Assembly: GCF_000004825.1 (NCBI RefSeq)
Contig: NW_008805103.1
Coordinates: forward strand, 309,941-373,940
From: Heterostelium album PN500
Taxonomy: Eukaryota > Evosea > Eumycetozoa > Acytosteliales > Acytosteliaceae
Direction: 5' to 3'
Length of the DNA: 64,000 nt
Shown in pieces: positions 54,014-57,779 of the stretch. Positions within the stretch are counted from its first letter, which is position 1. Every line of letters begins with the position of its first letter. The notes below the pieces were generated by a model that was not told the origin of the DNA, ran no database searches, and saw nothing but the letters and a program-made list of their open reading frames with translations. The translations under genes were made by a program, and so were the position numbers.

Positions 54014-56118
54014 ATGTTTGTAGTAAAGAGAACATCACCATTGTTCAGCGAACTTATCAACTGTGGTGCTTCTGCATCAAGAAGATTCTACACTCCATCA
54101 TCACCACTCAACTCTGTATACGATTCAATCAGAAGAAAGAGAGAAAGAAAGGGTTTAGTAAGTATAATAAAACATAATCAAACAAATTACAAATGCATAC
54201 ATACATTCAATCATAAAACAAACAAACAAAGAAATAAATAAAGAAATACAAAAAAAAAAAGAAAAAGAACAAAACAAGTAGTTTAATCAAACTAAAAATG
54301 GTCATCTTCATACAAATCGATTCGAATCACTTTTAAAACAACACTTTTAACCACAACAAACAAATTTCTATGAAAAAAAAAAAACAAAAAAAAGAGATAA
54401 TCAATTGTTAACACTTTTTTATTATTATTATTATTATTAATAATAATAATTACATTATTTATTTTTTATAGGTAAATATTGAAAAGGAAAATGAATCAGA
54501 TACTATGGTTTTCCCAAATGAAAGAATTGGATTGGACTATGCTTTGAATTGGACATTGAATTCATATGCAATCACACCGACTCAGAATGCATTCCGTAAT
54601 CCATCGGCAAAGTTGTTGTTCCAATACGCCGAGGGAACCAAGGAGAAGTCTGGTGCTCTCTCGTGTCAGGTCACCGACAACAAACCGGTCAACTACTATC
54701 TCGACCAACAGGTTGCAACTCTGAATCAATCGGCATCGAATGTCATCACGATCGCGCAATACAAGCAGTTGCTCGCAGAGGTCAAGAACCACATTAGCGA
54801 AGCCGACAACATCTACGTGCAGGATGCCGCCGTCGGATCGCACCGTGCCTGCGAGGGAATGGTGCGTGTCATGACCAACTGTCCACAGACCGCACTCTTC
54901 TTGAAACATCTCCTGCCAAACACTCCACTCCCCGAGGTTCGTGAGTTCAAACATCAGATCACCCTCTACGTTGCACCCAACTTTAAGCCAGCGGATGCCG
55001 CCAAGCTAGGATTGAAAGACAGTGCTGCCGCCGCCGGTTCATTCAATGTTATCGATGTCAAGAGAGGTATTGCCGTGATCGCTGGTAAGCAATCGAGTGA
55101 GAGCATCCGTCGTACTCTTACCGCAATCTCCTCGCCATATCTCCACAACGAGCGTCAAGGTGTTGCCATGTCAGCCGCCGACATCTTCCAGACCAAAGAC
55201 GACAAGAACATCTTGGTGTTCTCCGCCGACAACTATCTCCTCAACAAGAGATTCGAATCCGGTAGAGTCATCTCGCAAGGTTCACTCTGGAACAAAGAAG
55301 GTTTATTCCGTCTTTACGATTCCATCTCCTATCCATTGGAATCAGCTGCCAAACAACCACTGTAAAGTATTTGCAAAATCATGATTAGATTTGGTTTTTT
55401 TTACTAACTAAAATATTTTTATAATTATTATTTTAGTGATTTGATTGAGAAATTCACAAATCCAAAGAGAGTACTCTCAACAGTTCCAATCAAGAGCAGT
55501 GCCAACATATATGCTAGTCCATCATCGATTGTATTCTTGGTTAGAGATTCCAAGGGAATCATCCCAGCATTTGCAGAGTTGACTCCAGAGCAAGCAGAGA
55601 AATACTTTACATCTGGTTTCAATGGTGAATCATTCCAACCATACTTTACCCCTGAATCAATAACTGTATCACCACAAGGAAAGGCCGAATTATTTAAGAG
55701 TAAATATAATAATAGATCTATATTCTATTATCATATATCTAAAATATTAATATTAATATTTTCTAAATTATTATAGATTTAATTCAACAAAACAGAACCA
55801 ATGTATATATAATCAATCCTCTTTCATTCCAAAAAGATGCTGATGTTGATAAATTAATTTCCGTTATCTCTAGTGGAAAAGTTGTAAGTATAATGATAAT
55901 GAAATTTAAAATATTAAAGAATAGATTTATTAATTATACATTTTACTGTTTAATAATATTATTAGAACAAATCAACAAAATCTGATATTTATAAGTCATT
56001 ATCACCAATCAATCTCTCAGAGACTAAAGTTAGTGAAGTCGATAAGAATAAGGTCAAGGAGTTTGAAACTCACTTTGAAAACTTCCATTCCAAGCTTTTT
56101 AATAATAATAATCAATAA
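54014..56118 (+). CDS. Mitochondrial ATP-PEPCK-like protein lacking kinase motifs (probable pseudoenzyme)
   Basis: Five exons (54014-54157, 54472-55361, 55437-55699, 55777-55883, 55966-56118) encode 518 residues, near the 540 of ATP-dependent phosphoenolpyruvate carboxykinase. The N-terminus (MFVVKRTSPLFSELINCG...SRRFYTP) looks like a mitochondrial presequence. The PEPCK fold is recognisable from several blocks in the right order: NIYVQDAAVGSHRACEGMVR, FKHQITLYVAPNF, IAVIAGKQSSESIRRTLTAI, SSIVFLVRDSKGIIPAFAEL, and LTPEQAEKYFTSGF (about 391-404). True enzymes have LTPEQAxxxFxSG in the same place. However, the P-loop (GLSGTGKTTLS in the family) is replaced by NILVFSADNYLLN at about 293. The metal-binding DDEH segment is replaced by SQGSLWNKEG, and the TGRSPKDK substrate loop by a different sequence. 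It is therefore probably catalytically dead. Expression looks good (C-ending codons). Confidence 0.75.
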
Positions 56119-56446: not shown

Positions 56447-57779
56447 TTAGAATTTATCTATATCCCAATAGATGGTTGATTCCAATGGGAATAGATTCGC
56501 AAGAGATGTTTGTTCATTACTGATACTTTTATCACTAACAAACCTTGCCATCATTGATTTATCTACTCTATGTTGTATTGTACTATTTAAAGGATTAAAA
56601 ATCACATTGGTTTGCTTGTTATTATTGTTGAAAAGATTAGAAAATAAAGTTGTTGGATATTGAATTGATAGTATTTCTTCTTCTGGTGTTGATTGTTGTT
56701 GTTGCTGTTTAAGACTATCAAAAGCTAGTTGTATTAATTTAATGATTATAGCTTCTCTTTCTACTGTATTATCATCTCTCCATTTCTCGTTGATTGCAAT
56801 ATCTTTTACCACCATCATTATCGTTGGTTTCTTATCATTTGTTTCATAGATCTTAAATATACCAGTAATAATAAATCCGACAATCAAACCATTACAACTT
56901 AGCAACCATCCTTTATTACTATTTAATGATGGTGAAATATTCGATGCAATCCAATCTCTCCAATAACTGATATCTCTAACTACATTTGAATTATATTGTT
57001 TTGTATGTAATAATGATTCTATTATACTGTGATGATGATGATGATCATCTTCTTTTAAAGTATTTGAATATAATTGTTCAAATTTTAAATTATTATTATC
57101 AAAACTATTATTGTAATTATTAATATTATTATTATCTTTATCGTTATTATTATTATTAATGTTGTGAAATGTCTCAATAGTGAATGATCTATCAATATAA
57201 GACCAACCTTTAGAGTGATACATAGGTGCAAACTTTGAACTGAATAGCAATCCTAATTTGATATTATTTTCATTCATATACTCTAGAGCCATATCGAGTA
57301 ACTTTATCGAAAGAGATCTACCTCTATAATTAACATTGGTGCTTACTTCTCCAATACCACCAAAACAAGTGATACTAGAACCAATCAGTAAGATATCTCG
57401 AATAAATAACTTTACAGTAGAGACAATCTTTTCATTATCTAAACAAACAAATATAACTATATTGTACAATCAATGAATCAAATAGACTATATATTAATAT
57501 TACTAATAGTATTAATAATTATTAACTAATCATCTCAAAAAGAGACTTACTGTTCTTTTGTTTGTAAGGGTCAGAATAATGATGTTCCTTAAAGTATTGG
57601 TAAGGTGTATCAACGAAAACAGTAATCAAGTGGTTAAGCCAATCATTGATAAATGACTCTGTTTGTTCGTCATAATTTATTATTTTATAAATTAAATTAT
57701 TGTTGTTGTTGTTATTGTTGTTACTATTATTTTGGTTGTTCAATGTTGACGCACTATCTGATAATATATTCATTTCCAA
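56447..57779 (-). CDS. GNAT-family N-acetyltransferase-like protein
   Basis: Two exons on the minus strand (57779-57551 and 57438-56447) give 406 residues. After an N-terminal poly-Asn run, the acetyl-CoA-binding core is seen at about 105-165: GGIGEVSTNVNYRGRSLSIK followed by LLDMALEYMNENNIKLGLLF and APMYHSKGWSYI. The V-x4-YRGRxL pattern is the GNAT motif A that binds the pyrophosphate of acetyl-CoA, and MYHSKGW fits motif B (xFYxKxGF/W). The C-terminal half has no clear second domain, though WLLSCNGLIVGFIITGIFKI could be a second, degenerate GNAT-like strand set, as in Eis-type proteins. The substrate is unknown. There is no signal peptide. Confidence 0.75.

What the first reader, a model, noticed from the sequence alone, without database searches (positions are those of the whole stretch)
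54014..56118. Mitochondrial PEPCK-like pseudoenzyme
The protein follows ATP-PEPCK block by block, including the C-terminal LTPEQAxxxFxSG signature. Yet the P-loop, the DDEH metal site and the substrate Arg loop are all replaced, while the frame is open over five exons and codon usage looks selected. A maintained, inactive PEPCK with a mitochondrial-like N-terminus suggests a structural or regulatory job.
Basis: partly seen in the sequence, partly recalled or inferred. Interest (0 to 1): 0.7.

Follow-up and report, generated by a model that had tools for sequence, protein, structure and literature searches.

The report
Dead PEPCK, likely complex I subunit
A social-amoeba gene encodes a burnt-out copy of the enzyme PEPCK that most resembles a structural subunit of mitochondrial complex I known mainly from Euglena and its relatives, hinting that this extra part of complex I is older than thought.

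Summary
Window 54014-56118 (+) carries a five-exon gene (518 aa, GT-AG introns, no stops) related to ATP-PEPCK (Pfam PF01293, 81.4 bits). P-loop, DDEH metal site and substrate arginines are lost; an intact PEPCK lies elsewhere in the genome.

The likely identity is new. At E<=0.001 the PDB matches are three PEPCKs and NDUEG2, the inactive PEPCK-like subunit of Euglena complex I (28.5 bits). The genome's intact PEPCK does not match NDUEG2 at E<=10. An NDUEG2 fragment searched against the whole genome finds this gene only (E 1.4e-5). It scores 28.4 bits against at most 22.3 in 385 alphaproteobacterial genomes.

Best explanation: an amoebozoan relative of NDUEG2/NDUTB12, kept as a non-catalytic cap on complex I. 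Shared ancestry is fairly well supported; complex I membership is inferred. Against it: no MDR partners found, NDUFS4 test inconclusive, the C-terminal part resembles PEPCK and not NDUEG2, the fold model leaned on PEPCK rows. The subunit is called Euglena- or euglenozoan-specific in two papers.

The parts
54014..54157 (+). exon 1, aa 1-48, with a mitochondrial-targeting-like N-terminus (aa 1-26, 54014-54091)
54472..55361 (+). exon 2, aa 49-344 and two bases of codon 345: PEPCK N-terminal domain and start of the C-terminal domain; most of the NDUEG2-like region (aa 158-365)
55222..55254 (+). aa 299-309 (SADNYLLNKRF), where PEPCK has its P-loop; motif absent
55273..55284 (+). aa 316-319 (SQGS), where PEPCK has the DDEH metal site
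55345..55347 (+). aa 340 (Ala), where the genome's own PEPCK has Arg318; alignment loose here
55437..55699 (+). exon 3, PEPCK C-terminal domain core with LTPEQAEKYFTSG (55579-55617); matches PEPCKs, not NDUEG2
55777..55883 (+). exon 4, remnant of the PEPCK C-terminal domain
55966..56118 (+). exon 5, C-terminal tail to the stop codon

Best explanation
The gene encodes an imported mitochondrial matrix protein that descends from ATP-PEPCK, has lost catalysis, and shares its later history with NDUEG2/NDUTB12. [quoted passage not shown] Shown here: the gene, the PEPCK descent, the loss of the catalytic residues, and a closer sequence match to NDUEG2 than any PEPCK examined. Inferred: import, complex I binding, the NDUFS4 contact and the stabilising role.
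For: PDB search at E<=0.001 gives 5 sequences: three PEPCKs and the two NDUEG2 chains (28.5 bits, E 7e-6, aa 158-365). The genome's intact PEPCK, searched the same way, does not list NDUEG2 at E<=10. The NDUEG2 fragment 162-367 lists no PEPCK in the PDB at E<=10, reaches Pfam PEPCK_ATP with only 13.3 bits, E 0.034, and in the whole own genome finds only this gene (28.4 bits, E 1.4e-5). Best PEPCK against the fragment: 14.7 bits among 79 sequences, 14 bits in 8 bacterial genomes, 22.3 bits in 385 alphaproteobacterial genomes. Smith-Waterman: window-NDUEG2 123 (0 of 2000 shuffles, maximum 59), best of 79 PEPCKs 83, own PEPCK 60, best PEPCK picked from the 385 genomes 107. Two independent descents from PEPCK should make this pair the least alike, not the most; crude simulations of that gave at most 85 and 0 of 3600 reached 123. 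NDUEG2 is published as PEPCK-like, lacking ATP sites and bound through NDUFS4 (section 7 of PMC10884005). N-terminus and codon use fit.
Against: The identity to NDUEG2 is 50 of 198 aligned residues. The margin over the best alphaproteobacterial PEPCK is 6 bits. In the dead-site segment alone the pair is not clearly closer than PEPCKs are to NDUEG2 (58 against 56; 48 against 44). The part after aa 344 matches PEPCKs but not NDUEG2, and it keeps more of the C-terminal domain than NDUEG2 is said to. No second MECR-like MDR protein, the partner pair in Euglena, was found. NDUFS4 here is only about 6 residues longer at its C-terminus than the mammalian-length chains. The tree joins the two at 100/100, but both branches are saturated, so it counts for nothing. 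No proteomic or structural evidence in this organism.
Confidence: 0.55

Rival explanations
1. An independent dictyostelid PEPCK pseudoenzyme: PEPCK was duplicated or acquired, decayed and was kept for a structural or regulatory job outside complex I, for example holding a metabolic enzyme. The likeness to NDUEG2 is chance plus shared retention of the fold.
For: Exons 3-4 match PEPCK and not NDUEG2. No euglenid-type MDR partners found. The best alphaproteobacterial PEPCK is only 6 bits behind, and the dead-site segment is not decisive.
Against: The pair is more alike than any of the PEPCKs examined is to NDUEG2, the reverse of what independent descent predicts (crude).
Confidence: 0.27
2. A still active enzyme or ligand binder with rewired chemistry: the PEPCK fold binds an oxyanion, nucleotide or dicarboxylate and acts as a sensor or as a different enzyme.
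For: The fold core seems kept and basic residues remain where Lys196/Lys197 lie (Arg261, Arg262).
Against: P-loop, metal ligands, substrate arginines, lid and nucleotide segment are gone together.
Confidence: 0.1
3. A decaying gene on its way to a pseudogene.
For: Strong divergence from PEPCK: 46.4 bits against a cut-off of 590.05 for the pckA equivalog.
Against: 518 codons open over five exons with four proper introns; codon use like other genes here.
Confidence: 0.05

Closest known systems
NDUEG2 (Euglena gracilis complex I; NDUTB12/NDTB12 in trypanosomes, DIPPA_18104 in Diplonema)
   Different: Other eukaryotic supergroup; the window protein keeps the LTPEQA C-terminal block, which finds PEPCKs and not NDUEG2; complex I binding unproven; MDR partners NDUEG3/5 not found.
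ATP-dependent phosphoenolpyruvate carboxykinase (PckA, PF01293, TIGR00224)
   Same: Domain order, fold of the N-terminal domain, LTPEQA block.
   Different: No catalytic residues; 81.4 bits to PF01293 against 736.9 for the genome's own PEPCK; far below the pckA equivalog cut-off.

Membership tests
NDUEG2/NDUTB12 complex I subunit | derived from ATP-PEPCK | tested here: met
NDUEG2/NDUTB12 complex I subunit | closer in sequence to NDUEG2 than PEPCKs are | tested here: met
   28.4 bits against at most 14.7 (79 PEPCKs) and 22.3 (385 genomes); not met for the C-terminal part
NDUEG2/NDUTB12 complex I subunit | ATP-binding sites lost | tested here: met
   NDUEG2 state from PMC10884005
NDUEG2/NDUTB12 complex I subunit | takes up the C-terminal strand of NDUFS4 | tested here: inconclusive
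   NDUFS4 of this genome is about 6 residues longer at the C-terminus than 175-residue chains; no contact can be modelled
NDUEG2/NDUTB12 complex I subunit | present in purified complex I | not testable with these tools
   needs proteomics or structure
Euglena-type five-subunit FAS domain | MDR pair NDUEG3/NDUEG5 beside the PEPCK-like subunit | tested here: not met
   one MECR-like gene, 292 bits to MECR against 163 to NDUEG3; next MDR hit of the MECR query 63 bits. Divergent copies could be missed
Euglena-type five-subunit FAS domain | NDUEG1/NDUTT2/NDTB17 adenylate-forming-like subunit | tested here: inconclusive
   17 AMP-binding matches in the genome, but no NDUEG1 sequence at hand to tell which, if any
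active ATP-PEPCK | P-loop, DDEH metal site, substrate arginines | tested here: not met
active ATP-PEPCK | pckA equivalog score (TIGR00224, cut-off 590.05) | tested here: not met
   46.4 bits; own PEPCK 796.6

The most novel reading that the evidence does not exclude
A PEPCK, perhaps of alphaproteobacterial type, was disarmed and built into complex I before Amoebozoa and Euglenozoa parted, so that the cap on the peripheral arm now called Euglena-specific was part of an ancestral eukaryotic complex I and was lost in animals, fungi and plants.
Probability: 0.3. Interest if true: 0.78.

Novelty: new member of a known kind. Interest (0 to 1): 0.6.

Why it matters
Two papers count the PEPCK-like subunit among Euglena- or euglenozoan-specific additions to complex I; a third names a Tetrahymena homologue, NDUTT2, but the Euglena structure paper equates NDUTT2 with NDUEG1. 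A member in a dictyostelid would push its origin back and make the make-up of the ancestral complex I testable in an easily handled amoeba (the usual relative, D. discoideum, is a laboratory model). It would also give a clean case of an enzyme that turned into a building block.

Tried and rejected

Search for Euglena partners: 28 ADH_N matches, one MECR-like protein and otherwise weak MDR hits, and that protein is a true MECR. 10 LYR matches and 17 AMP-binding matches could not be tied to NDUFA6 or NDUEG1. In the simulations the protected sites were in practice also often changed, so they are only a rough guide. The Dictyostelium mitochondrial 'PCK2' XP_645396.1, reported with 30 and 32 peptides (passages of PMC8145953), may be the true PEPCK or this protein; I could not tell.

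Print: searches for NDUEG2, NDUTB12, NDUTT2, NDTB12, 'PEPCK-like' with 'complex I', and PEPCK with complex I in Dictyostelium, Acanthamoeba or Amoebozoa listed nothing that, from titles, abstract starts and the passages I opened, describes an amoebozoan NDUEG2; whole texts and subscription journals were not read.

Full report
What is there. The finding's coordinates hold a complete gene: five exons, four GT-AG introns, 518 aa. The genome (32.9 Mb, 39 contigs) is that of a dictyostelid but not D. discoideum by its myosin II: 775 bits to a myosin-2 that I recall as that of D. discoideum, with visible differences, against 418 for the next kind. No related genome is held, so orthologues could not be compared.

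PEPCK descent and loss of function. Pfam gives PEPCK_ATP at 81.4 bits; the genome's intact PEPCK scores 736.9 and lies on another contig. The protein keeps 28 of 110 columns that are invariant in 19 PEPCKs; the P-loop, DDEH, the aligned substrate arginines, the lid and most of the nucleotide segment are gone. It reaches 46.4 bits where the pckA model asks for 590.05. Exon 2, modelled with 40 bacterial PEPCK rows, gives a PEPCK-like structure (mean pLDDT 70.8); without those rows the prediction fails, so the structure is support for the alignment rather than independent proof.

The link to complex I. The PDB search lists, at E<=0.001, three PEPCKs and the two chains of NDUEG2. [quoted passage not shown]). 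Trypanosome NDUTB12 and Diplonema DIPPA_18104 are listed as its counterparts (passage of PMC12699882), and NDUTB12 was found in complex I of trypanosomatids (passage of PMC8312217).

Is the link more than shared PEPCK descent? Several controls say yes. The true PEPCK of this genome does not list NDUEG2 at E<=10. The NDUEG2 fragment lists no PEPCK in the PDB at E<=10, has 13.3 bits to the Pfam PEPCK profile, 14.7 bits at best to 79 PEPCKs, 14 bits in 8 bacterial genomes of which 3 had any match at E<=10, and 22.3 bits at best in 385 alphaproteobacterial genomes, of which 77 had a match at E<=1. In the window's own genome it finds one place only, this gene, at 28.4 bits. Raw local scores order the same way: 123 for the window protein, 83 for the best of 79 PEPCKs, 107 for the best one picked from the 385 genomes. 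If both pseudoenzymes had come from PEPCK separately, the pair should be less alike than PEPCK and NDUEG2 are; rough simulations of that case gave at most 85 (0 of 3600 at 123).

What speaks against. The margin over the best PEPCK is small; the segment that covers the dead catalytic sites is not on its own decisive (58 against 56; 48 against 44); the C-terminal 175 residues match PEPCKs and not NDUEG2. The tree is saturated. The MDR partners of the Euglena module were not found and the NDUFS4 tail is only slightly long. So if the protein sits on complex I, the module differs from that of Euglena.

Origin. Among the 79 PEPCKs, the window protein scores best by phmmer with alphaproteobacterial (Mesorhizobium) sequences (47.7 bits), and the most NDUEG2-like PEPCK seen also comes from an alphaproteobacterial genome. 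This hints at an alphaproteobacterial source, but Mesorhizobium is overrepresented in the sample, plain alignment ranks a gammaproteobacterial sequence first (L079, 175 against 171), and only alphaproteobacteria were searched in number.

Reading. I take the protein as a dictyostelid member of the NDUEG2 line, most likely a structural cap of complex I (0.55). It makes a set of clear tests possible in D. discoideum, where mitochondrial proteomics already reports a 'PCK2' (XP_645396.1; passages of PMC8145953) whose identity should be looked at again.

Noticed in passing
L001 (G000:C9:1121594-1122994): The genome's only full-length PEPCK match is intact; its N-terminus (spliced by eye) has no evident mitochondrial signal, so PEPCK activity is probably cytosolic here.
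   Followed up: partly
L041/L028 (G000:C12:774290-775297): One MECR-like enoyl reductase gene, 292 bits to solved mitochondrial MECR and 163 to Euglena NDUEG3; no second MECR-like copy found.
   Followed up: yes
L004 (G000:C12:1169650-1169874): NDUFS4 gene with a C-terminus about 6 residues longer than mammalian-length chains.
   Followed up: partly
PDB entry 9a4u (fold search listing): An integrative model titled PCKA-QOX2 lists PEPCK together with a quinol oxidase subunit by cross-linking; only the title was seen.
   Followed up: no
window 56447-57469 (-): Neighbouring 340-aa frame that looks like a GNAT acetyltransferase by eye, with strongly AT-ending codons.
   Followed up: no
PMC12854811 against PMC10884005: Two papers disagree on whether Tetrahymena NDUTT2 corresponds to NDUEG2 or to NDUEG1.
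   Followed up: partly
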